This document shows positions 531-38,800 of a DNA stretch of 64,000 nt, piece by piece. A program made the translations under genes and the position numbers. The number at the start of each line of letters is the position of its first letter. The first letter of the stretch is position 1. The notes under the pieces are model-generated. The model ran no database searches. It was given only the letters and a program-made list of their open reading frames with translations, and had not been told where the DNA came from. The stretch comes from Tubiluchus corallicola (taxonomy: Eukaryota; Priapulida; Priapulimorpha; Priapulimorphida; Tubiluchidae): assembly GCA_030141605.1 (NCBI GenBank), contig JAQGDQ010000750.1, forward strand, positions 1-64,000. Direction: 5' to 3'.

Positions 531-671
531 ACAGAGAAGGTTAGTCATTTGAACAGCAAGATCAACGAGACGAGGAACGGAATCACGGACTACACGCTCT
601 CCATCGACAAGATGAGGCTTTCTCGTGATGTCAAACTCCACGACATTGAAACATTCCGTGCAAATGCTGAT
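531..671 (+). CDS. ITSN1: intersectin exon A, coiled coil
   Basis: 47 codons, phase 0 in and out, after the acceptor TTATTTGTTTAG. It encodes a charged heptad-like stretch starting TEKVSHLNSKINETRNG and ending FRANAD, typical of the central coiled coil through which intersectins form dimers and bind partners. The donor GAT|GTGAGT is the first member of a 20-bp tandem array that repeats the splice site many times. Confidence 0.85.
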
Positions 672-1500
672 GTGAGTAACTGAATGTTGATGTGAGTAAC
701 TGAATGTTGATGTGAGTAATTGAATATTGGTGTGAGTAACTGAATGTTGATGTGAGTAACAGAATGTTGATGTGAGTAACAGAATGCTGATGTGAGTAAC
801 AGAATGTTGATGTGGGTGAACAAATGTTGATGTGAATAACTGAATGTCGATGTGAGTAACTGAGTGTTGATGTGAGTAACAGAATGTTGATGTGAGTGAA
901 TGAATGTTGATGTGAGTGAATGGATGTTGATGTGAGTAACAGAATGTTGATGTGGGTGAACAAATGTTGATGTGAATAACTGAATGTCGATGTGAGTAAC
1001 TGAATGTTGATGTGAGTAACTGAATGTTGATGTGAGTGAATGAATGTTGATGTGAGTGAATGAATGTTGATGTGAGTAACAGAATGTTGATGTGAGTAAC
1101 AGAATGTTGATGTGTGTGAACGAATGTTGATGTGAGTAACTGAATGTGGATGTGGGTGAACAAATGTTGATGTGAATAACTGAATGTCGATGTGAGTAAC
1201 TGAATGTCGATGTGAGTGAATAAACATTGGTGCATGAGAATAATTATGATATGAGCGAATAAACATCCTGTGAATTTATAGTGTTCACCGATGTGAGTAC
1301 ATAAATGCCAATGTGAGTGAATAAGCACCAATGTGAGTGAATAAATGTCGATGTGAGTATATAAATATCAGCGTGAGTGAATAAACGACAGTGTGAGCGA
1401 ATAAATTTCAACGTGAGTGAATAAACATCAGTGTGACGGAATGAATGTTGATGTAAGTGAATAAGCACTGATACAAGTCTATAAACGTGAGTAAATAAAT
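664..1500 (+). repeat. 20-bp minisatellite seeded on the exon A splice donor
   Basis: The unit is TGAATGTTGATGTGAGTAAC with variants. It runs nearly clean to about 1220 and in decayed form to about 1500. The exon A junction (GAT|GTGAGTAAC) is the first copy, so the array repeats the 5' splice site more than 25 times. No stop codons occur on the - strand in several frames, which creates long false reading frames rich in His, Thr and Ser. Confidence 0.95.
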
Positions 1501-1675
1501 GTTAAGCAAATAAATATGAGTGTGAGTGAATAATGCAAATAAGTATTCATTGACGCGTGTGAATTGCACAGTGACAAAGCTTTATTATACAAATCTGCTC
1601 GGTGCAAGCCACTATCAACATTCAACAGCACCACCTGTTGGCGAGTGAATAACAGTAATTTTGTTTTTGTCACAG

Positions 1676-1763
1676 GAATATAACTCAACGTTGACGAGGC
1701 TGCATTCTGAAAAGAAACAGCTGGAAACGAAACTGAAAGAAAATGAGCCGAGTAATCCGGTCG
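1676..1763 (+). CDS. ITSN1: intersectin exon B, coiled coil
   Basis: 29 codons plus one base (phase 0 in, phase 1 out), acceptor GTTTTTGTCACAG, donor GTCG|GTAGGT. It encodes EYNSTLTRLHSEKKQLETKL followed by an acidic tail, a continuation of the coiled coil. The phase-1 end joins the 2-base start of exon C to make an Ala codon. Confidence 0.85.
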
Positions 1764-2400
1764 GTAGGTGTAACTCCATCCGGAAAGTTTGCAACTAATG
1801 CATTTTGAGAGACAAAAATTGTTTTGAATTATAAATGGCTTCGAGAGTTGGGTAACTGAAGAACCCTGGGAAAGTGCGCAATCACCAGTTTCCAGGAGTC
1901 GGTCTTGTAAAAATTTGTTGTGGTATTTTAATTAGGGCTGACACGACGTACAGACTGGTAGTGGTTAGCTAACCAGGTTCACTGTCTAGACCCCCTACTG
2001 GCGCTATATACTTGTGAGGACTAATAAAAGGCGTGACTACTTTAACCGCTCCACTGCCACGCTATTTGTGTTCTTGCTGGCCCAGGTGAATGTTACAAAA
2101 AAAAACCTTGAGTTGCTACTGCTCCACATGCTACTAGGGCCGATTTAGCCTAGGCGAGGCCAGGGGAAGTGGGGCATGTGAGGCCTCATTGGGGGTGGGG
2201 CGATGTGCTGGGGGGCGGGCGCCATCATTGTTGGCGCCCAGAAAATTTTTGAACAGCTAGAACGCCGGAGAAGCATTTTCGAACAGAAAATATGGGGTTA
2301 TACAGTTGTTAAAGGAAAAAACAATTGAAAGAAAAACTGCTTTTTATTCTCAAGACCAGTCCTTAATACTTGTCAATACTGGCAAAAGGCACGCGTGCGG

Positions 2401-2446
<46 letters not shown>

Positions 2447-2779
2447 GAGGCAGTATGTTCACATAAAGCAAAAAAAATGTTACCTTGGCGCGAGACCCCC
2501 CTGGAGGGTGAGGCCCCGAGGAAGTATCCCCACTTCCCCCCCTTGAAATAGGGCCTGCATGCTACTACATTCTTTGCTGCATCTCTATCAGGTTTACTGA
2601 CACAAATATCAACGCCACCATCATGGCTGTTAATTGATACCCCATTAATTTTCATTGCTGTTACCACTGCTCTTGTCCACCACCACTAGCATGGGTGCCG
2701 CCATTTTCTTCACATCATTTCACAGATTTTTGTTTTGTTTTGTATAATTCAAAACATCTCACAAAATATGGGGTAGACA
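1764..2779. other. intron sequence, no gene seen
   Basis: Only a (GA)n microsatellite (about 2404-2446) and a G-rich patch near 2150-2230 stand out. The reading frames over the microsatellite are low-complexity accidents. Confidence 0.6.
2404..2446. repeat. (GA)n microsatellite
   Basis: About 40 bp of alternating GA with one GGG interruption near its end. Confidence 0.95.
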
Positions 2780-4690
2780 ACTTAGCAGACTGCAAAAAAA
2801 CACACAAGACTGCAGATTAACACAGAAGACTGCAGAAAAACAGCAGACTGCGAAAAAACACAGTAGACTGCAAAAAACACAGCAGACTGCAAACAAACAC
2901 AGCAGACTGCAAATTAACACAGAAGACTGCAAAAAACACAGCAGACTGCAAATTAACACAGAAGACTGCAAAAAACACAGCAGACTGCGAAAAAACACAG
3001 AAGACTGCAAAAAACACAGCAGACTGCAAAAAAACACAGCAGACTGCAAAAAACACAGAAGACTGCAAAAAACACAGCAGACTGCAAAAAACACAGCAGA
3101 CTGCAAAAAAAACAGAATACTGCAAAAACACAGCAGACTGCGAAAAAACACAGAAGACTGCAAAAAACACAGCAGACTGCAAAAAAACACAGAAGACTGC
3201 AAAAAAACACAGAAGACTGCAAAAAGCACAGAAGACTGCAAAAAAACACAGAAGACTGCAAAAAAACACAGAAGACTGCAAAAAACACAGCAGACTGCAA
3301 AAAACACAGCAGACTGCAAAAAACACAGCAGACTGCAAAAAAACAGAAGACTGCAAAAAAACAGCTGACTGCAAAAAACACAGAAGACTGCAAAAAACAC
3401 AGCAGACTGCAAAAAACACAGCAGACTGCAAAAAAACAATACTGCAAAAAACACAGCAGACTGCAAAAAAACAGAATACTGCAAAAAACACAGCAGACGG
3501 CAAAAAACACAGTAGACTGCAAAATAAACACAGCAGACTGCAAAAAACAAAGCAGACTGCAAATTAACACAGAAGACTGCAGAAAAACAGCAGACTGCAA
3601 AAAAACACAGCAGACTGCAAAAAAACACAGAAGACTGCAAAAAACACAGAAGACTGCAAAAAAACACAGCAGACTGCAAAAAACACAGAAGACTGCAAAA
3701 AACACAGCAGACTGCAAAAAAACACAGCAGACTGCAAAAAAAACAGAATACTGCAAAAAACACAGCAGACTGCGAAAAAACACAGAAGACTGCAAAAAAC
3801 ACAGCAGACTGCAAAAAAACACAGAAGACTGCAAAAAAACACAGAAGACTGCAAAAAACACAGAAGACTGCAAAAAAACAGCTGACTGCAAAAAACACAG
3901 AAGACTGCAAAAAACACAGAAGACTGCAAAAAACACAGCAGACTGCAAAAAAAACAACAGAATACTGCAAAAAACACAGCAGACTGCAAAAAAACAGAAG
4001 ACTGCAAAAAAACAGCTGACTGCAAAAAACACAGAAGATTGCAAAAAACACAGCAGACTGCAAAAAACACAGCAGACTGCAAAAAAACAATACTGCAAAA
4101 AACACAGCAGACTGCAAAAAAACAGAATACTGCAAAAAACACAGCAGACGGCAAAAAACACAGTAGACTGCAAAATAAACACAGCAGACTGCAAAAAACA
4201 AAGCAGACTGCAAATTAACACAGAAGACTGCAGAAAAACAGCAGACTGCAAAAAAACACAGCAGACTGCAAACAAACACAGCAGACTGCAAACAAACACA
4301 GCAGACTGCAAAAAAACACAGCAGACTGCAAAAAAACACAGAAGACTGCAAAAAACACAGAAGACTGCAAAAAAACAGCTGACTGCAAAAAACACAGAAG
4401 ACTGCAAAAAAACACAGCAGACTGCAAAAAACACAGCAGACTGCAAAAAAACAGAATACTGCAAAATACACAGCAGACTGCAAAAAAACAATACTGCAAA
4501 AAACACAGCAGACTGCAAAAAAACAGAATACTGCAAAAAACACAGCAGACGGCAAAAAACACAGTAGACTGGAAAAAAACACAGCAGACTGCAAAAAACA
4601 AAGAAGACTGCAAAAAAACAGCAGACTGCGAAAAAACACAGAAAACTGCAAAAAAACACAGCAGACTGCAAAAAACACAGCAGACTGCAA
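2780..4690. repeat. 17-18 bp minisatellite array with higher-order structure
   Basis: More than 100 copies of ACAGCAGACTGCAAAAAA and close variants (AGAAGACTGC, CAGCTGACTGC, AATACTGC). Variant strings recur in the same order: the block holding CAGCAGACGG then CAGTAGACTGC then CAAATTAACAC occurs at about 3491 and again at about 4142, an offset of 651 bp. A partial third occurrence is near 4543. This indicates amplification of multi-unit segments. The - strand has almost no stop codons in any frame, so 200-640 codon Phe/Cys/Leu frames appear that are not genes. Confidence 0.95.
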
Positions 4691-5012
4691 CGCACAAGCG
4701 GTAAAAATGGCAGTGTTTTCTGCAAGTTTCGTCCATGTTTTCGGCTATATGCATTTCCTGATCTGCATGTTAACTTTTTTGTCAACAGAGGGCAGCGCCG
4801 CTGTTTATTTTGAGTATCAAGTGTGCCTGATAGGTGCCGGTATGATTGCTGCTGGTGTACGCATCACTTAATTTCCTTATTAGGCATGATGGTCAGTCTC
4901 GTCGTACAGGGCAGTCAGAACAGCATTTTCATGATGGCAGATTCTCTTCATACGGGCAGTAAAGTGGTTAATGTACGTCGCTACAGCTGCCTACTACTTT
5001 TCTATTTACTAT
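4691..5012. repeat. dispersed repeat, related to 50590-51480
   Basis: This segment (TTTTCTGCAAGTTT, then GTCAACAGAGGGCAGC, then GTCAGTCTCGTC) aligns by eye with 50620-51480, where the same repeat is interrupted by a TTAA-flanked MITE. In the second copy the left part reads AGCAGACTGCAGCGCGC, suggesting that the adjacent 2780-4690 array grew from this repeat. Confidence 0.6.
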
Positions 5013-6212
5013 TTAAAGAAGACAGGGTGATTTTTCATATACAGGTTTTACACGTCAAATGTAGACACGGGAAAGTTCAAATGTGACTTAGGTAAGTCAA
5101 ATGTAGACACAGGAAAGTTCGAATGTGTTTTGGTAACTCAAATGTGACTTAGGTAAGTCAAATGTAGATGCATTACTTTGAATAAATGGGTAATTAAGTT
5201 ATTTAAGTGCAAATTAGAAAAAGATAAACCAAAGTTAGTGCATCTATTAGTAAGCCTATAACGTTGTTATTTTAACTTGGGAGCAATTATTAAATTGAAA
5301 TTAAAGAAGATTAAATTTAACATCCTTAAACTTTACCACCTATCCACATTTGAGTTACCAAGACACATCTGAATTACCTAAATCTACATTTGAGTTACCA
5401 AGACACATTTGAATTACCTAAATCTACATTTGAGTTACCAAGACACATTTGAATTACCTAAATCTACATTTGAGTTACCAAGACACATTTGAATTACCTA
5501 AGTCTACATTTGAGTTACCAAGACACATTTGAACTACCTAAGTCTACATTTGAGTTACCAAGACACATTTGAATTACCTAAATCTACATTTGACTTAACG
5601 TAGGTCTACATTTGACATGTAAAACCTATACTATCCCATTTTCAAGTTAGATAAAAAGTATACATTTTAACACAGTTAGTATAGCAAAAGCATTTCTGAT
5701 GATTAAATAATAGATTAAAAACTTAATTAACAGCGGGCGAGCTCAACTATTGATGACTTCACAAACTAACTTAAGTTGCAACGGGAAAAATATTCCACGA
5801 ACGTGTTGCACGTGTTTGTGAAAACGAAAATTGAAGTACAGTACTATAAGATATTCAGTGTGTTGTACTAAAACTAGACAAGTTTTAAGATAAAAATTCA
5901 AATTTCAAATATACTGTTATGCTAGGGCATGAGGTGTCAAACGTGTGTAGTTCATCAGTGACTAATACAGCTGAACTGAAAGGCACAGTACCTGTTTTTG
6001 TGCAATGGGTTTCAGAAATACAGGCGCTAGTGCCCATCTAACTAGCGAATGGCGAAATGCACGTAACAGTGAAGAACTAGTGACGCGAATGTGAAATTGT
6101 AATAATTCTTTCATGTAAGTCATTTTTGAAAAAATTGTGTGTTTCCTTTCAACGTTTTAACGAGTAGATTGTCTTGACCTACAGTTTAAGATTGTGTCCG
6201 GTTTTGCTTTAA
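5013..6212. mobile_element. piggyBac-like MITE (TTAA ends) carrying an internal minisatellite
   Basis: Both ends are TTAA followed by inverted repeats (TTAAAGAAGACAGGGTGAT at the left, TGTCCGGTTTTGCTTTAA at the right). A second copy at 56671-57269 lacks the internal array. Interior blocks shared between the copies include AAAGTATACATTTTAACACA and AAGATATTCAGTGTGTTG. TTAA target sites are typical of piggyBac-group elements; the superfamily call is inferred from the target site only. Confidence 0.65.
5050..5630. repeat. about 40-bp minisatellite with inverted flanks, inside a MITE
   Basis: The right part (about 5330-5600) repeats CTACATTTGAGTTACCAAGA plus CACATTTGAATTACCTAAAT about six times. 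The left part (5050-5165) carries the same words inverted (TTGGTAACTCAAATGTG, GTAAGTCAAATGTAG), and the outer ends are complementary (GGTTTTACACGTCAAATG against CATTTGACATGTAAAACC). The whole forms a large imperfect palindrome. Confidence 0.85.
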
Positions 6213-6301
6213 TTGCCAATGGAGCGTATTCACGAGCGCAAGCCTCAGCCATTTTTATACCTGCCAAAATGCGTTTTTGCATCCATATGTTTTATTTCTA
6301 G

Positions 6302-6441
6302 CCGAAGATCTGAAGATAGTACAGCACAACATCTCGACAAAAAGGCAAATCTTATCTCAGCTTAATGAACGGAAGCAGAATTTGCAGTCGGACAAGAATA
6401 AAATCAAAACTGACGTGCAATCAACTAATGCTCAGATATTG
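6302..6441 (+). CDS. ITSN1: intersectin exon C, coiled coil
   Basis: Two bases complete a codon from exon B, then 46 codons; phase 0 out at ATTG|GTGAGT. It encodes EDLKIVQHNISTKRQILSQL, then a Lys/Asn/Gln-rich helix ending TNAQIL. No Pro or Gly interrupts the heptads. Confidence 0.87.
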
Positions 6442-6525
6442 GTGAGTCCCGCCCTTTAACTTGAGGCAGATCAGCTTCTTTGTGCTAAACGTGTTTTAGT
6501 GCTTTGCATTTTTTCACTTGTTGAC

Positions 6526-6856
6526 CCTCGACAACAAGACGGCTATGACAACAACAAGACAGCTATGATGACAACAAGACAGCTATGATGGCAACAAGAC
6601 AGCTATGATGACAACAAGACAGCTATGACGACAACAAGACAGCTATGACGACAACAAGACAGCTATGACGACAACAAGATGGCTATGACAACAACAAGAC
6701 GGCTATGACGGCAACAAGATGGCTATGACGACAACAAGACGGCTATGACGACAACAAGACGGCTATGACGGCAACAAGACGGCTATGACGGCAACAAGAC
6801 GGCTATGACGACAACAAGACGGCTATGACGACAACAACACAGCTATGACGGTGACG
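6526..6856. repeat. 20-bp minisatellite downstream of exon C
   Basis: About 16 copies of ACAACAAGACGGCTATGACG (variants GACAGC, GATGGC) starting 84 bp after the exon C donor. Confidence 0.95.
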
Positions 6857-6980
6857 ACAAGCCGGGAATTAGTGTATCAACTGCTGAAATGTGACAAGAT
6901 CTGAAAACGCTGTACCTTAGTCTGCAGAACAGTGACTATTCGAACATTGTTGTGTGTTGTTTGTTGTTTATTGTTTTTTG

Positions 6981-7135
6981 ATAGTTGGGTATTTTAAATT
7001 GTGCATGAAACAAGATAATTGATATTTTAAGTCCATTTAGAGGCTCTCTATGGTCACAAAATTGCAATTTCTTGCTGGCTTCAATGGGGTTTTGCCTGTT
7101 TCAGAGTTTTTTGCAATTTGTCATTCTCATCCCTG
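6981..7135. mobile_element. 3' fragment of the CAGGGATGAGAA MITE family
   Basis: It aligns with the right halves of the elements ending at 17202, 30863 and 60427 (ATAGTTGGGTATTTTAAATT, AGAGGCTCTCTATGGTCA, TTGTCATTCTCATCCCTG). The left half is absent. Confidence 0.8.
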
Positions 7136-7329
7136 AATAAATACATTTAGCTTCTTTGTAGGTCACTTCTTTACTCTTCAGTAACTTTTATTTCTTTGAA
7201 TTATTTTGTTTATTTTTGGTTTTTTATGCGACTTTCTTATGATAACTGTATTTGCAGTGTCGATTCTAACTAAATGCTGGTAGTGACATTACTAAATAGC
7301 TGTCTAAATTAACTCTTTACTGTGTGCAG

Positions 7330-7520
7330 GGGATGAAAGAGAAGCTGATGACAATTATGGAATCTCACAAACAGATGCAAAAAGATCTTCTTGAGAAACA
7401 GAAGGCCGTAGCGGCTTTGAAAGCAAGCGAGACCGCAACCGTTAAAGCCAACGACGTCAGCGTTCCTCCCCCATCAATAGATACGACCGCATTCAAGGCC
7501 GAGCTGGAAAAGAAGCTCGC
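7330..7520 (+). CDS. ITSN1: intersectin exon D, end of coiled coil
   Basis: 63 codons plus two bases (phase 0 in, phase 2 out), acceptor ACTGTGTGCAG, donor CTCGC|GTAAGT. It encodes GMKEKLMTIMESHKQMQKDL, then a Lys/Ala helix, a short VPPPS break and FKAELEKKLA. The last bases and donor are the first copy of a 76-bp tandem array. Confidence 0.87.
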
Positions 7521-8349
7521 GTAAGTATAGCGTCACCATACAGGGTGGTGCAAAACGTTTTGCTAGGGGAGTACAACATCAACTGGTACAGCTCGCGTAA
7601 GTATAGCGTCACCATACAGGGTGGTGCAAAACGTTTTGCTAGGGGAGTACAACATCAACTGGTAAAGCTCGCGTAAGTATAGCGTCACCATACAGGGTGG
7701 TGCAAAACGTTTTGCTAGGGGAGTACAACATCAACTGGTAAAGCTCGCGTAAGTATAGCGTCACCATACAGGGTGGTGCAAAACGTTTTGCTAGGGGAGT
7801 ACAACATCAACTGGTAAAGCTCGCGTAAGTATAGCGTCACCATACAGGGTGGTGCAAAACGTTTTGCTAGGGGAGTACAACATCAACTGGTAAAGCTCGC
7901 GTAAGTATAGTGTCACCATACAGGGTGGTACAAAACGTTTTGCTAGGGGAGTACAACATCAACTGGTAAAGCTCGCGTAAGTATAGCGTCACCATACAGG
8001 GTGGTACAAAACGTTTTGCTAGGGGAGTACAACATCAACTGGTAAAGCTCGCGTAAGTATAGCGTCACCATACAGGGTGGTGCAAAACGTTTTGCTAGGG
8101 GAGTACAACATCAACTGGTAAAGCTCGCGTAAGTATAGCGTCACCATACAGGGTGGTGCAAAACGTTTTGCTAGGGGAGTACAACATCAACTGGTAAAGC
8201 TCGCGTAAGTATAGCGTCACCATACAGGGTGGTGCAAAACGTTTTGCTAGGGGAGTACAACATCAACTGGTAAAGCTCGCGTAAGTATAGCGTCACCATA
8301 CAGGGTGATACAAAACGTTTTGCTAGGGGAGTACAACATCAACTGGTAA
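7515..8349 (+). repeat. 76-bp minisatellite containing the exon D splice donor
   Basis: Eleven nearly identical 76-bp units start at 7515, 7591, 7667 and so on. Each unit contains GCTCGCGTAAGTATAGCGTC, that is the last six coding bases of exon D plus its donor. Only scattered single-base differences occur (for example GGTGGTGC/GGTGGTAC), so the array is young or homogenised. Confidence 0.97.
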
Positions 8350-8663
8350 CAATACAGAACAATTCATTACAGTAAACTCAGCCTAACTCTAAATCGCATA
8401 AGTCAGCGAAACGGAAATCCTTCGTTTTTCCCACAAAAAACATCTCTTCGCTCAAAATATATAACTCAAAATTTCTCCCAACTCAAATAAAAAATTATGA
8501 TCCATTTAATAAAAATACATGTAATTAGTTTGTTTATCTCAAAAACGTAATTTATACTCTAAAAAAGTGGTTTCGTACAACTCAAAAACAGTATCGTCTT
8601 CCCAGAATATTCTGATGTCTTACAAGTTGCGCCTCCCCCCCCCCCCAATTATTTTCTCCGGGA

Positions 8664-9360
8664 TTGATCTTTTCGGGAAAGTCTCAGTCAGCTACTATGT
8701 ACAGTAACGCTCTGCTGAGGAAGATCTTTCCGGGAAAGTCTCACTCAGCTACTATGTACAGTAACACTCTGCTGAGGAAGATCTTTCCGGGAAAGTCTCA
8801 CTCAGCTACTATGTACAGTAACACTCTGCTGAGGAAGATCTTTCCGGGAAAGTCTCACTCAGCTACTATGTACAGTAACACTCTGCTGAGGAAGATCTTT
8901 CCGGGAAAGTCTCAGTCAGCTACTATGTACAGTAACAGTCTGCTGAGGAAGATCTTTCCGGGAAAGTCTCACTCAGCTACTATGTACAGTAACACTCTGC
9001 TGAGGAAGATCTTTCCGGGAAAGTCTCAGTCAGCTACTATGTACAGTAACACTCTGCTGAGGAAGATCTTTCCGGGAAAGTCTCAGTCAGCTACTATGTA
9101 CAGTAACAGTCTGCTGAGGAAGATCTTTCCGGGAAAGTCTCACTCAGCTACTATGTACAGTAACACTCTCCTGAGGAAGATCTTTCCGGGAAAGTCTCAG
9201 TCAGCTACTATGTACAGTAACACTCTGCTGAGGAAGATCTTTCCGGGAAAGTCTCACTCAGCTACTATGTACAGTAACACTCTCCTGAGGAAGATCTTTC
9301 CGGGAAAGTCTCAGTCAGCTACTATGTACAGTAACACTCTGCTGAGGAAGATCTTTCCAG
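8664..9360 (+). repeat. 57-bp intronic minisatellite, 12 copies, open in frame
   Basis: The unit of 57 bp (19 codons) contains GATCTTTCCGGGAAAGTCTC then AGCTACTATGTACAGTAAC. One + frame is open for 240 codons and reads FPGKSHSATMYSNTLLRKI repeatedly. Positions that vary between copies (His/Gln at CAC/CAG, Thr/Ser/Ala) alternate along the array. It lies wholly in the intron between exons D and E, with no convincing splice sites in frame, so I treat it as repeat and not as an exon. Confidence 0.9.
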
Positions 9361-15673: not shown

Positions 15674-15754
15674 ATTCTTGGGCTGTTTTTGCCACCACTA
15701 CGGCCACTTCAAGGCCTATTTATGATGAAGTTCCCGAGGAGAAACCGTTCAAAG
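15674..15754 (+). CDS. ITSN1: intersectin exon G, YDEVP module
   Basis: 81 nt, phase 1 in and out, acceptor TAATTTTTTTAG, donor CAAAG|GTTTGT. It encodes DSWAVFATTTATSRPI, then YDEVPEEKPFK (Tyr codon at 15721). DSWAVF may stand where other modules have DPW. The donor GTTTGT is weaker than its neighbours and is repeated in the array that follows. It is in the same frame as F and H, and its 81-nt length means it could be skipped without a frameshift. Confidence 0.82.
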
Positions 15755-15983
15755 GTTTGTCATATTGAAATTCACTGTGGTTATCCATTTCAGTTAAAGG
15801 TTTGTCATATTGAAATTCACTGTGGTTATCCATTTCAGTTAAAGGTTTGTCATATTGAAATTCACTGTGGTTATCCATTTCAGTTAAAGGTCTGCCATAT
15901 TGAAATTCACTGTGGTTATCCATTTCAGTTAAAGGTTTGTCATATTGAAGTTCACTGTGGTTATCCATTTCAGTTAAAGAGAA
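15751..15983 (+). repeat. 45-bp minisatellite containing the exon G donor and an acceptor-like site
   Basis: Five copies (starting 15755, 15800, 15845, 15890, 15935) of a 45-bp unit that begins AAAGGTTTGTCATATTGAAA and ends TTATCCATTTCAGTTAAAGG. Each unit offers AAAG|GTTTGT (donor-like) and TTATCCATTTCAG (acceptor-like) 39 nt apart. Read in the exon G frame the first copy gives a stop at once (TTG TCA TAT TGA). Confidence 0.95.
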
Positions 15984-25954: not shown

Positions 25955-27016
25955 CTAGAAAATAAAATCCTCGTTAGCCATAGGCGTACGGTTAAGGGAG
26001 GTGATTGCCTTCCCACAGCTGCAATTGGGAGTTCTTTGTGTGACGAATTGTCTACAAATTTTAATAATTATAACGCTATGATAATGCCTGCTATCAGTTT
26101 TAGCTCACTAAACCTCATAAGTCCATTATTCGCTTGCTAAGCACGCACTCCTCAATGTGCTGGCAAAGTTATAGACATGTTTGCAAGAGGAAAGCGTAAT
26201 CTGGGTCACCATTATTTCTTTTGAATTTGTCAAACGTTGGAAAAACTATTGTGAAAGTATTTGCATGTTTGTTCATGTTCAGTGAAAATGCAAATCTTTG
26301 ACTTGTGTCTTGTTAGACTAGTGATTTCTTCATAAAGGATATTTATTATAATTTGGTGTTCTTGCATTTATTTATTGTTACTTTTGCAATTGCTATATGG
26401 TGTGACTTCAGGAGCTGATCGTCTCCCCCTGCTCAAATTAGAGCAACTTGGAAAATTTTCAGAGCAAATTTATTGTACCGCCACCTTGTGAAACTTCCTT
26501 CCGTATGCCTATGTTGCTAGCATTTCTGTAATGAGTAATTTTAATAAAACATTCTGCCACATGAAACATTTTGAAAGCTTGTTAAGAACAAATCTGGCAG
26601 AATTTGGTTTTAGTAATTTCTTTGATTTTTTGCTTAGTCACTTCCTGTTAGCTGGAGGTTTGTTGTTCACCCACTGAATTAAACAGTAAAATACATGCAT
26701 AAATTTACAGATATTTATTAGTTTTAGATTTACCCTGAGTAAATAAAGCAAAAAATACAATCTGCAAATAACAAAACTTCCTGGTAATACAAGTTATAGC
26801 AGCACGCCGGGAAGGGGAGCTAGCTGTTTCAAACCTCCCCCGCACGAATTCTGACTAAACAAACCCGAGGCCCTTAACGACTGTTTACCAACCTGATAAC
26901 AGTTTCTTTTTTATGATTTTTAAAGGCAAGTATCTTTTTAAAAAGGAGATTTTTCAATGTTTACTAAAGATTTTTTCCACATTTTGTCACTTCTGCTTGC
27001 CAAAGATGAAACTTAC
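25955..27016 (-). other. intron of the nested gene
   Basis: GT (27016) to AG (25955) on the - strand. AT-rich with no other gene or repeat recognised. Confidence 0.65.
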
Positions 27017-27674
27017 CTTTAACTGTTATACTAACTTGAGAAGTGGAGCGACTTGGGTGTAGCAGAGGTTTCTCGATGCTCTTTACATCCGTTACATACA
27101 AGTTAGAGAAGTTTGGATGTTGAGTCAAATCCAAGGCAGGAATCTTCAAATCTTGACTGCCAAAGGCAATACTTATTATTCGTAGAGCAGTTACTTTAGC
27201 AAAAGCTTGTGGGTGTATGTGCAAGAGCTCTTTATTAAAAGTGAATGAAAGATGTCCAACGGTACCTACAATAGCATTAGCAGGCAAGGTAGTGAATTTA
27301 CCTAAGTTTATAGACAATCCACGCACTGATTTGCCGGTAAAATTCATTTTGAAAGGATCTCCACCTGCGGATTCGCTGGTTGCGAAGCGTTCGATTTTCA
27401 GGTACTCTGTAGGCTGAGGAAGCTTATCAGCTATATTCTGAATATCCTCGGGTTTCAAGCAATAACCTTCATATGGTGTTCCCGGGTAGCACTTTGGTTC
27501 TTGATAGTTTGGTCTGCAGACTATAGTACAATTGTCTCCATTGTAATAGAGTGTGATATGAAAGCACAAATGATGGTCAATCTTTTCACAAAAGGCTGAA
27601 AACCCTGGCTGAATGCACATCACAACAATAATAAATGCACCACAAAGGATTATAGAAACTTCAGGTGCCTTCAT
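27017..27674 (-). CDS. nested secreted cysteine/LRR protein, exon 1
   Basis: The start Met at 27674 begins a signal peptide with hydrophobic core IILCGAFIIVVMC and a likely cleavage after FSA (residue 27). Residues 29-72 hold six Cys (29, 37, 49, 53, 62, 72) in a small disulfide-type module. Residues about 95-205 form degenerate leucine-rich repeats (LSINLGKFTTLPANAI, LSFTFNKELLHIHPQAF, LRIISIAFGSQDLKI, FSNLYVTDVKSI). Donor AAAG|GTAAGT at 27017/27016, phase 1. With exon 2 the protein has 268 residues and no membrane anchor, so it is likely secreted. It lies antisense inside the intron that splits SH3A of intersectin. The ligand and exact family are unknown; invertebrate secreted LRR proteins of this size exist, but I cannot assign one. 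No clear TATA box is seen upstream. Confidence 0.8.
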
Positions 27675-28268
27675 CTTAGTGCAAACAAGTCAACAAATTA
27701 AGTTAGTACGCTTGACTGTCTTCGAAACGGATATTGAAGGTAGGAGACACAAGTTTCAACTGAGCAAAAATTAGAATGTTTATGATGAATGTCAGACAAT
27801 GCTGTACCGTAACTATGACAACATGACGTAATAATGTCTCTGCCCAACTGGAAAAGCTAAGTCAAAACTATGCTATAGTTGCAAATGTTCAGGTTTACTT
27901 TCTTAAAATAAGATTCAATCATTTTTATTAGCGGCAATGATTGCTATTGAGTTTCTTTAAAAATTGAATGTTTAGGATCCAGATTTTAGTGTCGGGATCA
28001 TAATGACCCCGATCTCAAACACCCCTGTTAGTCTTCTCTCCTCGCCTCTATCATATTTCTTTTCCATTTTTCTTCCTCTCCCCCTGTTTCAATCACTCTC
28101 TCTTTCAATCTCTCTATCTCTTCTGTCACTATAGCTCTTCCTCTGTATGTTCTATTTCTCTCTCTTCTCCCCTCTCTGTTTCTTTCCATATTCCTCTTCT
28201 TCTCTGTCTGTCCTTCGCTTCCTCTCTTTCTCTCTCCCTCCCTCCGTCACTTTCGAGATTTTTTCTGC
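27675..28268. other. upstream region of the nested gene; pyrimidine-rich tract
   Basis: 27675-27900 should hold the nested gene's promoter, but I see no clear core element. About 28030-28260 is a degenerate (CT)-rich tract (TCTCTCTTTCAATCTCTC). Confidence 0.5.
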
Positions 28269-30366: not shown

Positions 30367-30373
30367 TGCAATA

Positions 30374-30980: not shown

Positions 30981-31147
30981 GTGCCCGCAACGCAGACACC
31001 GGAGCCCGGTTGGCTTGCCGGAGAAGTAGACGGCAAGACGGGATGGTTCCCGGAAGCCTACGCAGATAAGATCAATGAAGAGCCTCAAACTCCGGATACA
31101 ATCACGCGGGATTTTCTTTCCGCTGCTTCTCAGGAACCTAGTCTGGG
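30981..31147 (+). CDS. ITSN1: intersectin exon K, SH3A C-terminal half
   Basis: 55 codons plus two bases, phase 0 in, phase 2 out; acceptor TCTTCCTACCAG, donor CTGGG|GTGAGT. It encodes VPATQTPEPGWLAGEVDGKT, then GWFPEAYADKI. The W of GWLAG, the GWFP turn and the YADKI strand complete the SH3A ligand groove. Ser/Thr-rich linker follows. Confidence 0.94.
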
Positions 31148-31261
31148 GTGAGTTTAGTCTCTTTTCCATTTTTTTGTAAGTTCATATGCTTCCGTATGAC
31201 ACAGTCATAGAAAAGCTTATTTTTTTAATTCTTCTTTGTAAAGTTGTTGATGAAATGTGCG

Positions 31262-31900
31262 CTTGCAAACCAAAACTGTCCATAAGTCGGCATAGTTAAA
31301 ACTACGCTATGATGGTTCAAAGAAGAGTGCCCCAAAAATTTGTTCAAATGTCAGTTTTTTTGTTTTCTGTAAAAACAAATGCTAAATATATTGGAGTTTT
31401 ATATTTTAGCATCAAATTGTCAAGAAAATGTTCAAAAATGCTAAAAATTTAATTTTATAACTCCTTACCCACTTCTGACTAGAAACCAGTAATGCAATTG
31501 TAAAAAACTTGTATTTTCAAACTCATATACCTCGTGGAAGCAGCCATTTTGCTTCCTGGTTTTACTGTTGCCAAACGCAGATCTTTTTCAGGAAGAGCCA
31601 CCTACTGGATTTAAACATAACTTCAATGTGTTCTTGTAAAGTCCATAGCAACCAACTATTGTGCGGTTGCTAAGTGTTTTGTAGAAACACGACAAAAACA
31701 ATGGCTGTCTTTAGCAACGATTTTCTCAAGATTATGTTTTTAACTGCATAGCCTGCACCTCAACTTCAATGTGGATTATGTGAGCTTAGAAATAACATAG
31801 AGCGATGAACTTGGTATCAAAATGATCCTCATGAAATAGAGATTCAGGATATTTAAATAGCTTTATAGCCGACTTATGAACGATTTTGCTATGCAAACAC
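31262..31900. mobile_element. dispersed repeat (CCGTCCACAAGTCGGC family), copy 2
   Basis: It aligns with 13243-13910 in the same orientation over most of its length (GCATAGTTAAAACTACGCTA, CATAGCAACCAAC, CGACTTATGAACGATTTTGC). Confidence 0.72.
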
Positions 31901-32347
31901 ACAAATGTTGTTTATTTTAAATTTGAAATCTGTTAATGCATTTAAATAATTTCAAGATATTTTAGTATCATTTCAACTGTGATTATTTTCTTCAACCTCT
32001 GGACTGAAATGCACTGTCAATTTTTTCTCGCATTTTACCAGCACCACACCCGGGTTGAGATATTTTTCACAGTGTCTAGACAGTGAATCACACAACTATC
32101 ACTTGATTAGTTGCATTGCAATATGGTACCCTGACATTTTTTTATCAGTTTTTGTGTCGTGCCGTTGCATGTCTAGAGTATCCGATTTTCCATTTCAAAA
32201 TTAACCAAATTTCATTTCAAAGAATCGTCAGTTCGGTTTCAATTCCACTTCACAGTAATTAGAGGCCACATGGCCCTGTAACTAGTATTTATCATTAAAT
32301 TATGTGATGAACGATGGATTGTCATTAAAAAATAAATTTCATATGTA

Positions 32348-32686
32348 CAGTCGACCCTCATTAAACCGGACCCCGTTAGCCCGGATATCGGATAAGACGG
32401 ACGTCATCCGTGGCAAAGGAAACTGACCGATTTCCGCCCGAGCCGGAGCGCTAAACACAACATGGCCTACCAACTGTACAATAATTTCTTTATCCTCACA
32501 GGTTAACTATTTTAAAGTAATATACAGTATAGTATATAGTGCACAGTATATAGTGCAATGTATATAGGCCTTATTAAGGTGATTATTCCTGTATAATATA
32601 GACTATATATAGGCACATCGGATAAATCAGACAATCGGCTAAACCGGACCCCCCCCCCATTAGTCCGGTTTAACGAGGGTTGACTG
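32348..32686. mobile_element. pogo/Tigger-like MITE
   Basis: Inverted ends CAGTCGACCCTCATTAAACC and GGTTTAACGAGGGTTGACTG flanked by TA on both sides. The CAGT(C/T)GAC-type ends and TA target fit Tc1/mariner elements of the pogo/Tigger group. No transposase inside. Confidence 0.87.
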
Positions 32687-32981
32687 TATTAAGTATCTAG
32701 CCTATCAGGTATTTGTATATGGCTAAAATAAAATAAGAATGCCAACATTTAATTCGCACACAAAAGTTACAGAACAATATCCCATCATATTCGTACAAAT
32801 CATCGGGAAATTACCTGGCTAGCTGTCACACGCATAACATTGTTAAATTTAAGTTTCTAGTTAAATTTAAGTTTATGTTAAGGCTGTCACACGCGAAGTA
32901 ATTATGAGACAAACTTTGTGACAGTAAAGATCACGTGATGTTTGTACACACTAGTGATTTTTTTTGTGTAATTATATGTAG

Positions 32982-33120
32982 CGAAATCCCGGAAAAAACA
33001 GAGGAAACGTCATTGACGCCTGTGGTTGCCCCGGAAACGTCTCCTATGCCTGATAATGCTGCAGTGTCGCCATCTACTGAGGGTTTTAGAGAAGCGGCTA
33101 ACACTTCATCTCAGAAAAAG
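32982..33120 (+). CDS. ITSN1: intersectin exon L, SH3A-SH3B linker
   Basis: One base completes a Gly codon, then 46 codons; phase 0 out at AAAAAG|GTTTTT, a weak donor. It encodes EIPEKTEETSLTPVVAPETS, then PSTEGFREAANTSSQKK: acidic, Pro/Thr/Ser-rich and probably disordered. In vertebrates the SH3A-B linker holds AP2-binding sites; I see no W-x-D-F type motif here. Confidence 0.83.
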
Positions 33121-33429
33121 GTTTTTTTGTTATGTTTCATACACTATCGTTATCATAAAAGAATAATTGTACTGCAGTGGGCTAGAGAAGCAAAGGCTTG
33201 TATAAGTCCACTGTCATGTGAACCCAATAAAAAAAGAATGGATGAGTGAACAAAAAAAAGAACTGGGAGAAAGGTTAGATCACACAGGAAGGGTAGAAGG
33301 ATGTGTTAGTGGAAATGGTAGGAAGAAAGATAATACATTGTGCTATGTTGACATCAGCTCTAAAGATTTATCAATGATGCCTTGTTTTGCATAATCTGTA
33401 CCAGGATTGTGGTATGACTGCTGCAGTAG

Positions 33430-33612
33430 GTGTAGGAAATTAGGAAGTGTTGTACTTGTTGAGAATCATTGCTCTGTATTTCTTTTTAAATTTTTGAATT
33501 GGCTGAACAGTTTTTAATTCATCATTTATGTCATTCCGTAGCCTTGAACCAACATTTGCAATGAATTGGAAAGGTTGGAAAGAGACTTCTGTACTGCAAA
33601 TCCGTGTTAGTT
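33430..33612 (-). pseudogene. LINE 3' coding remnant
   Basis: The - strand reads LTRICSTEVSFQPFQFIANV, then GSRLRNDINDELKTV and FKKKYRAMIL before a stop. This resembles the C-terminal end of CR1/Jockey-type LINE proteins (R-x-F-x-G-x-x-x-W-N-x-L-P...F-K-x-x-x). Degenerate; moderate confidence. Confidence 0.5.
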
Positions 33613-33737
33613 CTTTTCCGTGGCGTTAATTACGCAACGTAGAATAGCAGAATTGAATATTAGTTTATCTTATCTTACTGTCATTGCCATTGTCTCTCTA
33701 CATGCTGACTGAGCATGTATTTACGTATTTTTTCCAG

Positions 33738-33890
33738 CCTCAGACCACTCCCGCACCGGAAGGCTTACAGGCTCAGGCGGTTCATCCGTGGAAAGCCAAG
33801 AAGGACAATCATCTCTCATTTAGCAAAGGAGAAATCATCAACGTCAAGTATCAGCAGGACATCTGGTGGTCGGGTGAGCTAGACGGAAAG
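33738..33890 (+). CDS. ITSN1: intersectin exon M, SH3B N-terminal part
   Basis: 51 codons, phase 0 in and out, acceptor TATTTTTTCCAG, donor GGAAAG|GTACGT. It encodes [20 protein letters not shown], then [19 protein letters not shown]. The [13 protein letters not shown] stretch and the [10 protein letters not shown] motif are diagnostic of intersectin SH3B. Confidence 0.97.
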
Positions 33891-34927
33891 GTACGTGCAC
33901 GCTTTAATTCGATTCAGTTTAATTTTATTCTTCACTCACTGAGTAAAACTAAAAATTTCCGGTGAACTTTCATTCGAATAAAAATTTGAAGACAAAGTGC
34001 AGGTACAGGGTTGCCCTAAAGAGTTGTTCTGTTAGAAAGTTTTCTGGCACCTAACAGGAACCAGAAGGATTACTTTAAGACCAGGTTTCAGGGTCCCACG
34101 GTCAGGGAAAACCCTTGAAAATGAAAGCTATCCTGGAAAGTCAGGGAAAAAGATAATTTGATGAAAAGTCGGGGGAAAATGATGAAATTGGGGCGAAAAG
34201 TCAGAGAAATTGGAAAGGTTTGCAAAAATAATCACCGTGAGCGGATATTTTTCCAAACACATTTTTCAGTGATTCGTGTTCAAATAAAATTTTGCTTTGA
34301 CAGGCTGCCACTTTCAATTTCTGTTCCAGAAATAACGATTGGTTTAAGAAAGTTTATTTAACGTGATTAGTGTAATTTCGTTAGCACTGCTGCAACTGTG
34401 TCGACACATTATATATCAGTATATGTATGAATGTCCACACACCAAAATGTTTGAATACGTATACTGGTAATGCAATCAATTTCTGCTTATCTTGGTCGTG
34501 GAAAATCAATATTTGGTCAGGGAAAACTCCTGGAAATGTCAGGGAAATTTATTCTAAAATTTTGTGGAAACACAGACTGGTTTATACGGTTCTGGAAAAT
34601 CCTCTTGCCTTTTTGTTTGGGATAACGTAGTAAGTGTCGCAGCATCCTTGAGCGACATAGTCTACTTCTTCGTTAGGCTTCGTTAGGCTTAGTTAATTAA
34701 TTTTTTGATCTAAACAGAAGACTGCGTCATCGCATTCTAATATACACTATTTTTTCACACACAAGGGATACGACATTTTAGATACGTAGTATAAAAATAT
34801 TGCTGTTTTATCATGTATTTTTGAGTCTTTGTTTTTAATTACTAATATACTAATTAATACCGTATAAAAACAAGTACTGTAAGTAATACAACTATAATAT
34901 GCCGGCATTATAACTGTCATATAATTG
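33891..34927. other. intron sequence with scattered AGGGAAA-type short repeats
   Basis: Words such as GTCAGGGAAA recur near 34100-34200 and 34510-34550. No gene or known element recognised. Confidence 0.45.
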
Positions 34928-35590
34928 TTGTTTTTTCATAACTTCTTGTTTATGTATGTAGTTTATGTATGTAGTTTATGTAGATATTATAATTGTCATA
35001 TAGAATTATTGCTTTTTTCATAACTTCCTGCTTATGTATGTTGTTTATGTATGTAGTTTATGTAGATATTATAATTGTCATATAGAATTATTGCTTTTTT
35101 CATAACTTCCTGCTTATGTATGTTGTTTATGTATGCAGTCTATGTAGATATTATAATTGTCATATAGAATTATTGCTTTTTTCATAACTTCCTGCTTATG
35201 TATGTTGTTTATGTATGTAGTTTATGTAGATATTATAATTGTCATATAGAATTATTGCTTTTTTCATAACTTCCTGCTTATGTATGTTGTTTATGTATGT
35301 AGTTTATGTAGATATTATAATTGTCATATAGAATTGTTGCTTTTTTCATAACTTCCTGCTTATGTATGTTGTTTATGTATGTAGTTTATGTAGATATTAT
35401 AATTGTCATATAGAATTATTGCTTTTTTCATAACTTCCTGCTTATGTATGTTGTTTATGTATGTAGTTTATGTAGATATTATAATTGTCATATAGAATTG
35501 TTGCTTTTTTCATAACTTCCTGGTTATATATGTTGTTTATGTATGCAGTCTATGTAAATATTATAATTGTCATATGACTGTTGCTTTTTT
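34928..35590. repeat. about 82-bp minisatellite, 7-8 copies
   Basis: Units contain TTTTTTCATAACTTCCTGC, TTATGTATGTTGTTTATGT and ATATTATAATTGTCATATAG. It ends about 260 bp upstream of the exon N acceptor. Confidence 0.93.
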
Positions 35591-35847
35591 TATAATTTTC
35601 TGCTTGCATATGTAGTTTGCATTGTACATTTTCAGTATCTTCATACTTCATTATTTAAATTGTACTTTTTGAAGGCCCTAATAAAACATGAAATATGAAA
35701 TATACAAAATTACTAATAAAAGAACTGAAGCACCACTTGGCTGTTTGTTCAAATTCATTGAATTGACCAGATTTTAGGGCAAATGCATTTTAAAGTGTTT
35801 TAAAACGCAAAGAAAACGTTGTTCCAATTAGTAATTTTTATTTTCAG

Positions 35848-35912
35848 ATTGGCTGGTTTCCCAAATCCTACGTAAAGCTGATCTCCGCACCGAGGAGGCA
35901 CACGTCACAAGG
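35848..35912 (+). CDS. ITSN1: intersectin exon N, SH3B C-terminal part
   Basis: 21 codons plus two bases, phase 0 in, phase 2 out; acceptor TTTTTATTTTCAG, donor CAAGG|GTAAAG. It encodes IGWFPKSYVKLI then SAPRRHTSQ. The GWFPKSYVKLI end matches the vertebrate SH3B terminus almost exactly. Confidence 0.95.
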
Positions 35913-36108
35913 GTAAAGATTCTTAAATTTGTTTTGAATTGTAGTAGTGCATTAAAGACTGGTTCACACTTGTGTCTCTTGTACTCTTATCCGTGTTTTT
36001 GTCCTCTCTATCACTTCGATATTTTTTTACACGAATCTTTCTGTTTCGCACTTTTTTTTTCTTAAACGCACTTTTATCTTTGTTTTCGTTTGGTTAATTT
36101 TTGCATTA

Positions 36109-36109
<1 letters not shown>

Positions 36110-36164
<55 letters not shown>

Positions 36165-36413
36165 CATTTAAAGTCGGCTTTTGGGTCAACAATTAACATT
36201 AGCTCAAAGAGCTATTATCACCGACTGTAAATAACAACCTACAACTGCATAACAGAGACTTGTATTACCCCACTTTTACCCTGAATACCACGCGTCAGGC
36301 AGGGCAATGGCAGGTACCATTTTTAAGTCTTTGGTATGACCCGGCCGCTGGTTCGAACTCACGACCTCCCAGACGGAAAGCAGACGCATTACCGCTAGAC
36401 TAAACCGTCTGGT
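36110..36413 (-). mobile_element. tRNA-derived SINE
   Basis: Read on the - strand it starts with a tRNA-like head holding an A box (TAGTCTAGCGG, + coordinates 36392-36402) and a B box (GAGTTCGAACC, 36350-36360). A body follows, ending in an (ATT)n tail, seen on the + strand as (AAT)n at 36112-36165. Not a functional tRNA gene: no credible acceptor stem. Confidence 0.87.
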
Positions 36414-36414
36414 C

Positions 36415-37004
36415 ATTAATGCTTTCTGTCTTTGCTAAATTGACCAATGCTGGTACGGTAGATGCAGAGGCACGTAAAGGTACAAAATACGCGCGTCATG
36501 TTTGGCTTCTTTCGTCAACACTTTCTCAAAAACAGATCGTCATCGACTGACGACCATCATTACTTCTGGCGGATTGGCGGTAAGGTGAATTGGACTCATG
36601 TTTGACCCGTATGTCAAAACGGTGCGCGTCTACATGCAGGACGATGTATGTGTACCTGTACTAAGTATGGTGATGCCTGCGCACGAATTTATCAAAACAG
36701 ACGGCAATTTAAGGTTCATTTGTTTAAAAGCGTATTAGGAAATGCCAGTTATAGTTAGTTTTATATAATTGGTTAATTAAGTTGTGGTCAATACACAATC
36801 ATTGGTCGTAAAGTCGAACGGACGTAAGTTGCTCAAGTCGTAAGTCGACAACTTCCTGTACCGGTACATTTAAATTTTTTTTGTGGACATTGGGATTGTG
36901 TTTTTGTTCCAAGGCGCCATCTATAAAAATTTTTAACAATGTTCTGCTTTATCTTTAATGCTGTTCAAGATAAAAAATTGTTCAACACAGGAACGTAATT
37001 AGCA
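36415..37004. other. intron sequence, nothing recognised
   Basis: No exon, RNA gene or repeat copy seen. Confidence 0.45.
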
Positions 37005-37012
37005 CTGATGAG

Positions 37013-37545
37013 TAGGGTTACCGTACATCCGGGTTTCCCCGGACACGTCCTCTTTTTAGGCCTCTGTCCGGGCGAGTTTTCAAAAAATCAGCAGTTTGTC
37101 CGGGTTTTGCCTCAATCCGTAAGTATGTACGGACGTTGCCAACTGCAGAGGCGTACGACAGTACGAGACAAAGAAAAGCTCGTTAATTTTCAATACAAGA
37201 TGTTGCTAACATCTCAAAATGCAACCCTTGTAAAAGCTTTGTGTACATATTTACTGAACAAAAGTAAGCGATGCGCACATCACTATGGGTCACACGACTC
37301 ACACCGCTGTCGATACTCGGCGTATTCGCTAACGACTTAAAATGGCATCAGCTTCCGGAAGCCATTTTGTTTGTTTTTATGTGAATTTCTTTAAATTTGT
37401 GTAGTTTCGCTGTTTTGCAGTTTTGAGCAACTTGTAAAAGTTAATTAGAAAGTAGCAATGCCGAAACGACAGCGTGCATTTACAGACGAAATGAAGGCCA
37501 AGTACCCGTGTCCTCTTTTTCAACTCAGACAATATGGTAACCCTA
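37013..37545 (+). mobile_element. hAT MITE with TAGGGTTACC ends
   Basis: Ends TAGGGTTACCGTA and ATATGGTAACCCTA. An exact 8-bp target duplication CTGATGAG lies at 37005-37012 and 37546-37553. Near its right end the + strand begins MPKRQRAFTDEMKAKYPC, similar in style to the N-terminus of hAT transposases, so it may be a deletion derivative that kept the start of the transposase frame. Confidence 0.9.
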
Positions 37546-37553
37546 CTGATGAG

Positions 37554-38196
37554 GCGCTTTAGAACATTTAAGAGAGCCGTCGCCAAATTAGCCGTTGATT
37601 GCTTTGATCTCATCTCTGACACCCGTGCATAATTCCATTTGTAACTTGGTCCTAAAACATTTGACAGATCCCTTCCAAAAAGACATTACTGTGAAACGCA
37701 TGTATGAGGTTGTAGTTGAACACTTTGTAGAAAAAGAATAAAACACTGTACTACATATTTGCACAAAACTGAAAGTGTTTATTAGACTGCATACACATAT
37801 GTAGAATGACTGAACACTGAGGACAAGAGTGTCCTGCACTGCACTGAGAGTGAGAGTTAGACAGTTGTGTAGCACGACTAGCATGACTCCTGCACTGCAC
37901 TGAGAGTGAGACAGTGACTAGAAGTGAAATCCAGCCAGTATATATAGGTAAAGGTAATTATACAAACTTGGCTTCACAAATACCATTACAGTAAAATAGG
38001 GAGAGATCCAGTGAGTATGCATATTCACTGGACCGAACAATTATACTAGGGGTGAGTTTAGCTAGTAAAATGTAAAGTGATTAGTCAATAGATGGCAGCA
38101 CCTAAAAATATACAGTTACAACTTCCACAGTTAGCGATTATCTCTTGTTTCTGTCAGTCCAGCATAGTACGAAGCTAACAGAGTTTTTTGTAACAG
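37554..38196. other. intron sequence, nothing recognised
   Basis: A direct duplication of CTGCACTGCACTGAGAGTGA occurs near 37835 and 37890. Otherwise no feature found. Confidence 0.45.
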
Positions 38197-38324
38197 GCAG
38201 GAGATCGGCAGTACGACGACGGCAGCGGGTGATTCGGTCACGACGCCTTCCTCGCAGGCTGAGCTATTCATTGCCGTCTATCCGTATACGTCCAATGAAC
38301 CTGGTGACCTGAGTTTTGAAGCAA
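38197..38324 (+). CDS. ITSN1: intersectin exon O, SH3C N-terminal part
   Basis: One base, 42 codons and one base (phase 2 in, phase 1 out), acceptor TTTTTTGTAACAG, donor GAAGCAA|GTAAGT. After a Thr/Ser linker it encodes ELFIAVYPYTSNEPGDLSFE, the first strands and RT loop of SH3C. The last 20 bases of the exon are copied in every unit of the array that follows. Confidence 0.93.
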
Positions 38325-38800
38325 GTAAGTTCAATGTACCTGAGTTTTCAAGCAACTAAGTTCAATGTACCTGAGTTTTCAAGCAAGCAAGTTCAATGTA
38401 CCTGAGTTTTCAAGCAAGTAAGTTCAATGTACCTGAGTTTTCAAGCAAGCAAGTTCAATGTACCTGAGTTTTCAAGCAAGTAAGTTCAATGTACCTGAGT
38501 TTTCAAGCAAGCAAGTTCAATGTACCTGAGTTTTCAAGCAAGTAAGTTCAATGTACCTGAGTTTTCAAGCAAGCAAGTTCAATGTACCTGAGTTTTCAAG
38601 CAAGTAAGTTCAATGTACCTGAGTTTTCAAGCAAGTAAGTTCATTGTACCTGAGTTTTCAAGCAAGTAAGTTCATTGTACCTGAGTTTTCAAGCAAGCAA
38701 GTTCAATGTACCTGAGTTTTCAAGCAAGTACGTTCAATGTACCTGAGTTTTCAAGCAAGTAAGTTCATTGTACCTGAGTTTTCAAGCAAGTTAATTCATT
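38304..38800 (+). repeat. 31-bp minisatellite built from the exon O end and its donor
   Basis: About 15 copies of ACCTGAGTTTTCAAGCAAGT plus AAGTTCAATGT. The true exon end ACCTGAGTTTTGAAGCAAGT differs by one base. Donor-like AAGCAA|GTAAGT alternates with AAGCAA|GCAAGT (destroyed donor) along the array, so functional-looking donors occur in about half the copies. Confidence 0.96.

What the first reader, a model, noticed from the sequence alone, without database searches (positions are those of the whole stretch)
664..38800. Four introns start with minisatellites whose repeat unit contains the 5' splice site
After exons A (671), D (7520), G (15754) and O (38324) the tandem unit (20, 76, 45 and 31 bp) begins within the last coding bases and includes the donor, so each exon is followed by a series of near-identical 5' splice sites. 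The four arrays have unrelated sequences, so this is a recurrent process, not spread of one repeat. Possible causes are replication or repair slippage seeded at exon/intron junctions, or retention because extra donors buffer splice-site loss. Consequences could include U1 decoy sites and exon 3' extensions, most of which would shift the frame.
Basis: partly seen in the sequence, partly recalled or inferred. Interest (0 to 1): 0.82.

Follow-up and report, generated by a model that had tools for sequence, protein, structure and literature searches.

The report
Tandem repeats copying exon-end splice sites
In one animal gene, several introns begin with a short DNA repeat that copies the end of the exon together with its splice signal; this is the kind of structure already reported from lancelets as 'mirages', here unusually dense in a single gene.

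Summary
Four exons of an intersectin gene (ends 671, 7520, 15754, 38324) run straight into tandem arrays (units 20, 76, 45, 31 bp) whose unit includes the last 4-18 coding bases and the 5' splice site. Twenty exons join in frame (1032 aa, no stop), so the exon ends are sound. A fifth case lies downstream of the window (C159:70747-71117; 38 of 41 unit bases are exon). Shuffled arrays reach five donor-spanning cases in 1 of 10000 runs (null mean 0.49). The units are unrelated to each other, and D occurs nowhere else in the genome. Readable breakpoints share 1-4 bp, so I read them as in-situ tandem duplications of the exon-intron junction, later expanded. Past the first donor a stop follows within 4-35 nt in all five, so only the first donor gives the protein.

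It is not general: 0 of 60 sampled exon regions of myosin and ion-channel genes show a comparable array, 80 other arrays are not donor-rich, and genome-wide tandem-donor counts are confounded by dispersed repeats. Tandem duplication over exon-intron boundaries is published for lancelet genes ('mirages') and for human duplicated genes. New member of a known kind; the density in one gene is the unusual part.

The parts
535..671 (+). exon A (intersectin, coiled-coil-like region by position)
   Evidence: joins in frame to exon B, phase 0
663..1217 (+). 20-bp array, 27.8 copies; first unit = 9 exon bases + donor, 11 intron bases; degenerate copies run on to about 1464
   Evidence: TRF; copy table
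7330..7520 (+). exon D
   Evidence: joins in frame to exon E, phase 2
7513..8349 (+). 76-bp array, 11 copies; first unit = 8 exon bases + donor
   Evidence: TRF; 11 of 11 copies keep GTAAGT; found only here in the genome
15674..15754 (+). exon G (carries the YDEVP motif also seen in exons F, H and I)
   Evidence: joins in frame, phase 1 like its neighbours F, H and I
15751..15979 (+). 45-bp array, 5.1 copies; first unit = 4 exon bases (AAAG) + donor; the unit also holds an acceptor-like CCATTTCAG
   Evidence: TRF; 4-bp AAAG shared by the two breakpoints
38197..38324 (+). exon O (first half of the third SH3 domain)
   Evidence: O|P junction gap-free against intersectin-2 SH3, 1uhf
38307..38804 (+). 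31-bp array, 16.1 copies; first unit = 18 exon bases + donor; 10 of 16 copies keep GT, part of the array alternates GT/GC
   Evidence: TRF; copy table; 2-bp AC shared by the breakpoints
39713..39816 (+). exon P, which completes the SH3 domain begun in exon O

Best explanation
Each array began as a short tandem duplication whose left end lay in the last coding bases and whose right end lay in the intron, joined at 1-4 bp of shared sequence, and later grew by unequal exchange or slippage. The exon-side copy still has the whole exon and a working donor, so the duplication was tolerated and splicing goes on at the first donor. The later copies are intronic relics. Shown: anatomy, frames, shared bases at the readable breakpoints, unrelated units. 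Inferred: the order of events, use of the first donor, neutrality. This is the published 'mirage' structure, here five times in one intersectin gene of a minisatellite-rich animal genome.
For: In-frame gene model and phases; O|P and CC|DD junctions. In the fifth array 38 of 41 unit bases are exon sequence and the last copy runs into GTAAGTGTGAC, which gives the polarity. Breakpoint shared bases D 1, G 4, O 2, CC 2. Units match neither each other nor other letters held; D hits only itself genome-wide. In all 5 an in-frame stop lies 4-35 nt past the first donor and before the next donor of score 3.5 or more. Genome minisatellite-rich: 64 arrays, 16.3% of 215,250 bp in 23 stretches beyond the window, four of them from the same contig. 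Mirages described in lancelet genes (PMC3087553 and PMC3902484, passages).
Against: No RNA data: use of the first donor is inferred. 0 of 60 sampled exon regions elsewhere show a comparable array (5 of 32 against 0 of 60, Fisher p 0.004), so neutral seeding at one uniform rate does not explain why this gene has five. Array starts fall in the last 40 exon bases (5) and not in the first 40 intron bases (0), which a strictly neutral model does not predict (p 0.06). Array A is too degenerate for its right breakpoint to be read.
Confidence: 0.75

Rival explanations
1. Chance: in a genome with about three minisatellites per 10 kb some arrays fall over donors, and the reader picked a gene where this happened.
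For: Dense arrays in most stretches sampled; 0 of 60 exon regions elsewhere; the gene was chosen after the fact.
Confidence: 0.12
2. Selected redundancy: extra donors are kept because they buffer loss of the first donor.
For: Donor GT kept in 28 of 28, 11 of 11 and 5 of 5 copies of A, D and G.
Against: Splicing at any later donor of score 3.5 or more includes a premature stop in all five; O has lost the GT in 6 of 16 copies; low divergence alone explains conservation in D and G.
Confidence: 0.04
3. A dispersed repeat that carries donor-like sites inserted next to the exons.
For: Dispersed array families with GTRAGT exist here (C17 and C26 share the motif of window 5054-5165; 15/30-bp spacing recurs on 8 of the 10 contigs listed).
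Against: The five units match nothing else in the letters held, D matches only itself genome-wide, and each unit contains that exon's own last coding bases.
Confidence: 0.03
4. The exon ends are misplaced, and the arrays are coding or fully intronic.
For: No transcript evidence was available.
Against: Twenty exons join without a stop; O|P and CC|DD align or join across the junction; reading into each array meets an in-frame stop.
Confidence: 0.02

Closest known systems
Mirages: minisatellite-like tandem duplications of exon-intron boundaries in lancelet Adh3, troponin C, globin (BflGb6, BflGb9) and PGBD5 genes (PMC3087553, PMC3902484; passages read)
   Same: Unit spans the exon-intron boundary, many copies carry the splice signal, unit lengths of tens of bases or more.
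   Different: Five in one gene and all at donors; the lancelet cases also include acceptor-side copies. The genome here was not identified: no GFP-family match, but the tool's control genomes do not ring either, so this is weak evidence against Branchiostoma.
Internal tandem repeats at exon-intron boundaries of human genes in segmental duplications (PMC2812944; passages read)
   Same: Minisatellite-size repeats over an exon-intron boundary.
   Different: There the repeats are variable between paralogs and reported to give alternative splicing and novel introns; nothing of that kind could be tested here.
Intron gain by tandem genomic duplication, potato RdRp gene (PMC4974935, title and start of abstract in a search listing only)
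   Same: Tandem duplication across splice-site sequence.
   Different: No new intron is seen here; the arrays lie in introns that already exist.
Ordinary intronic minisatellites
   Same: Same genome-wide array class.
   Different: These include coding bases and the exon's own donor.

Membership tests
mirage (lancelet exon-intron boundary minisatellite) | tandem duplication that spans an exon-intron boundary | tested here: met
   for four arrays; for the fifth
mirage (lancelet exon-intron boundary minisatellite) | unit length of roughly 10-160 bp | tested here: met
   20, 76, 45, 31 and 41 bp; lengths in PMC3087553: Adh3 10-72, globins 150-160
mirage (lancelet exon-intron boundary minisatellite) | many but not all copies keep the splice signal | tested here: met
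   28/28, 11/11, 5/5, 10/16 copies with GT; 8 donors of score 3.5 or more in the 9-copy fifth array
mirage (lancelet exon-intron boundary minisatellite) | normal mRNA in spite of the copies | not testable with these tools
   no RNA data; only the frame is shown
mirage (lancelet exon-intron boundary minisatellite) | length polymorphism between alleles or somatic instability | not testable with these tools
   one assembly; no second copy of the exon D junction region and none among the matches scored for exon A
mirage (lancelet exon-intron boundary minisatellite) | reported host group is cephalochordates | tested here: inconclusive
   no GFP-family match in the genome, but the control genomes do not ring either
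tandem-duplication intron gain | a novel intron bounded by the duplicated copies | not tested
   no relative with the intron absent was available

The most novel reading that the evidence does not exclude
Exon edges themselves are hot spots for birth of minisatellites in this gene, tied to transcription or splicing. Twelve of 27 arrays have an edge near an exon (3.9 expected, 0 of 10000 shuffles; the measure was chosen after seeing the distances). On the donor side arrays run into the exon and take the donor with them; on the acceptor side they stop 44-115 bp short, as if only the part that the branch point and acceptor need were protected. Genes would then differ in exposure, which would explain 5 of 32 here against 0 of 60 elsewhere.
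Probability: 0.2. Interest if true: 0.65.

Novelty: new member of a known kind. Interest (0 to 1): 0.42.

Why it matters
If read from RNA, each of these introns is a natural test of how the spliceosome picks one 5' splice site among 5-28 near-identical copies in a row. Recalled from older work, not from a call: when duplicated donors compete, the one nearer the acceptor is often favoured, which here would give only premature stops. The gene also shows, in several stages of decay, how exon sequence is copied into introns, which is the raw material in duplication models of intron gain.

Tried and rejected
Genome-wide pattern counts as a test of donor preference: GGTRAGT x3 gives 1482+1857 against 481+590 for the backward pattern; CAGGTAAGT x3 gives 143+231 against 20+9; single CAGGTAAGT 2750+2718 against 1146+1104; CAGGTAAGTW x3 gives 65+174 against 6+0. 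These all point towards donors, but I do not use them as evidence. Places count copies, not arrays: the 29 control places are 5 arrays, and the first 100 of 374 donor places lie on 11 contigs, against 3 control arrays over the same contig range, which is not clearly more than the single-motif ratio of 2.4. In one search, 8 of the 10 contigs listed share 15/30-bp spacing and look like one dispersed family (inferred from spacing; letters not shown), and C12 and C21 share a 26-bp unit, C17 and C26 a GGTAAGTCAAATGT unit.

Unit-level test: of 80 other arrays 5 have p<0.05 for a strong donor, about what chance gives; 6 of the 11 with donor score 8 or more were read and none has an exon model ending at the first donor, but that exon finder is weak (next paragraph).

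An exon finder trained on this gene gave a model in only 4 of 20 myosin regions, so it was dropped as a genome-wide tool. In the random stretches it predicted few exons and no donor in an array.

The 60 exon regions: exon ends were not resolved one by one; the test is whether any array of score 50 or more and period 9 or more lies over the junctions. Three such arrays occur in all: L050 and L064 lie downstream of the hit, L077 (14 bp x 2.1) sits at the uncertain 5' edge of its hit. Below the cut-off, two-copy repeats of 9 bp (L054) and 11 bp (L069) lie over possible donors; if counted they would be small relatives of the finding.

Organism: COX1, GFP and GH6 families gave no match; the last two have no ringing control. 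PF03552, PF00225 and PF00069 searches did not complete. I did not identify the organism.

Rows dropped: L014 and L030 look non-animal by GC and ORF length and were left out and the motif counts, but are in the totals. The seven longest myosin hits (591 bp and more) and the + strand copies on C917 were not fetched. The 60 regions are centred on 40 of the 93 myosin hits (one region, L043, holds a second whole hit) and 20 of the 140 ion-channel hits.

Full report
What is there. The + strand of the window carries most of an intersectin gene. The best solved-structure match of its second SH3 exon is intersectin-1 and a RhoGEF exon lies near the end. Twenty exons, A to T, join in one frame into 1032 residues with no stop. 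The junction after exon O aligns without a gap to the intersectin-2 SH3 domain 1uhf.

The arrays. TRF puts arrays at 663-1217, 7513-8349, 15751-15979 and 38307-38804. They take in the last 9, 8, 4 and 18 bases of exons ending at 671, 7520, 15754 and 38324. Copies with the donor GT: 28 of 28, 11 of 11, 5 of 5 and 10 of 16. A fifth array, C159:70747-71117, takes in the last 38 bases of exon CC (end 70784); 38 of its 41 unit bases are coding sequence, and the last copy passes into GTAAGTGTGAC and unique intron.

Chance. On C159:1-76200 with 32 exons and 27 arrays, 5 arrays span a donor (null mean 0.49, 1 of 10000 shuffles reaches 5) and none spans an acceptor (null 0.51). Six end within 120 bp upstream of an acceptor (null 1.54, 42 of 10000 shuffles), at 44 to 115 bp; twelve have an edge near an exon (null 3.93, 0 of 10000). 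Array starts: five in the last 40 exon bases, none in the first 40 intron bases, two between 40 and 100. Four of the five donor cases were noticed before the test; the fifth was not. The acceptor-side and edge measures were set after seeing the distances.

How general. The genome is rich in minisatellites: 64 arrays and 16.3% of bases in 215,250 bp of 23 stretches beyond the window, four of these from the same contig; the window has 21 arrays and 16.9%. Yet 60 regions around exon hits of myosin (40) and ion-channel (20) genes hold no array of score 50 or more over a donor; two much smaller two-copy repeats lie over possible donors, and one two-copy 14-bp array sits at an uncertain 5' exon edge. 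The same truncated flanks detect all five cases in this gene, so the zero is not a detection failure; the upper 95% bound is 4.9%, and 5 of 32 against 0 of 60 has p 0.004. Eighty other arrays are not enriched for donors. Genome-wide tandem-donor patterns are more frequent than their backward controls, but dispersed families and copy counting spoil that comparison.

Origin. The five units match neither each other nor other letters held. The D unit occurs only here in the genome. For A, the array matches shown are all on C159, but only 40 of 554 candidates were scored; G, O and CC were not searched genome-wide. The breakpoints that can be read share 1 (D), 4 (G), 2 (O) and 2 (CC) bases. This fits microhomology-mediated tandem duplication in place, then expansion. 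The order of events is inferred.

Effect. Reading past the first donor gives a stop that ends 12, 4, 14, 35 and 4 intron bases on in A, D, G, O and CC, in each case before the next donor of score 3.5 or more. So only the first donor can give the protein. Whether later donors are used at all needs RNA.

What is known. Tandem duplications of exon-intron boundaries are reported as mirages in lancelet Adh3 and globin genes, with unit lengths of 10-72 and about 150-160 bp and with length instability (PMC3087553, passages), and in lancelet PGBD5 and troponin C (PMC3902484, passage). Internal tandem repeats at exon-intron boundaries, with novel introns, are reported for human genes in segmental duplications (PMC2812944, passages). 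A recalled DOI for the founding Adh paper is not held. Of my paper searches most named amphioxus; others (6 listed; 10 of 216 listed) did not, and I opened only PMC2812944 and PMC3152781 (no passage on splice sites) from them, so I make no claim that other hosts are unreported. The host genome here (343.5 Mb, 2344 contigs) was not identified; absence of a GFP-family match is weak evidence against Branchiostoma, without a ringing control.

Verdict. Real, local, and of a known kind. What stands out is five in one gene, all on the donor side, with arrays also crowding the acceptor side but stopping short of it.

Noticed in passing
C159:70747-71117 (outside the window; 6747-7117 of L009): Fifth donor-spanning array of the same gene; 38 of 41 unit bases are coding sequence, and the last copy ends in the stronger donor GTAAGTGTG.
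   Followed up: yes
window 8666-9358, 39875-40452, 47067-48025, 51589-52373, 62333-62761; C159:65757-65963: Six arrays end 44-115 bp upstream of an acceptor, more than shuffles give (42 of 10000 reach 6).
   Followed up: partly
window 5054-5165 and 5342-5616: Two arrays of one motif in opposite orientation, with inverted ends around 5040 and 5632 read by eye; the motif recurs on C17 and C26, so it looks like a dispersed element with tandem-repeat ends that carries GTAAGT.
   Followed up: partly
window 400-484: Part of a dispersed repeat: 39 other places in the genome are listed at 82-87% identity (a lower bound).
   Followed up: no
window 38307-38804: Part of the array alternates GT and GC at the donor, a 62-bp higher-order repeat; 6 of the 15 extra copies have lost the GT.
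   Followed up: partly
window 15751-15979: The 45-bp unit holds a donor and an acceptor-like CCATTTCAG, so each copy looks like a tiny intron.
   Followed up: no
C159:69183-69335 (L009): A second copy of the RhoGEF exon at 62876-62968 lies in a later intron, between exons BB and CC.
   Followed up: no
window 26964-27689, - strand: Open frame of 241 codons inside an intron, secreted-looking by eye, no Pfam match.
   Followed up: no
L014, L030: Contigs C120 and C1975 have higher GC, long open frames and no arrays in the 10 kb read; they may not belong to the animal.
   Followed up: no
C507, C557, C676, C823, C854, C864, C911, C939: Arrays with 15/30-bp spacing of CAGGTAAGTW, apparently one dispersed family, on C676 in an inverted pair (letters not shown).
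   Followed up: no
L054 418-435 and L069 342-367 (in exon orientation): Two-copy repeats of 9 and 11 bp lie over possible donors in ion-channel exon regions, below the array cut-off; possible early stages of the same process.
   Followed up: no
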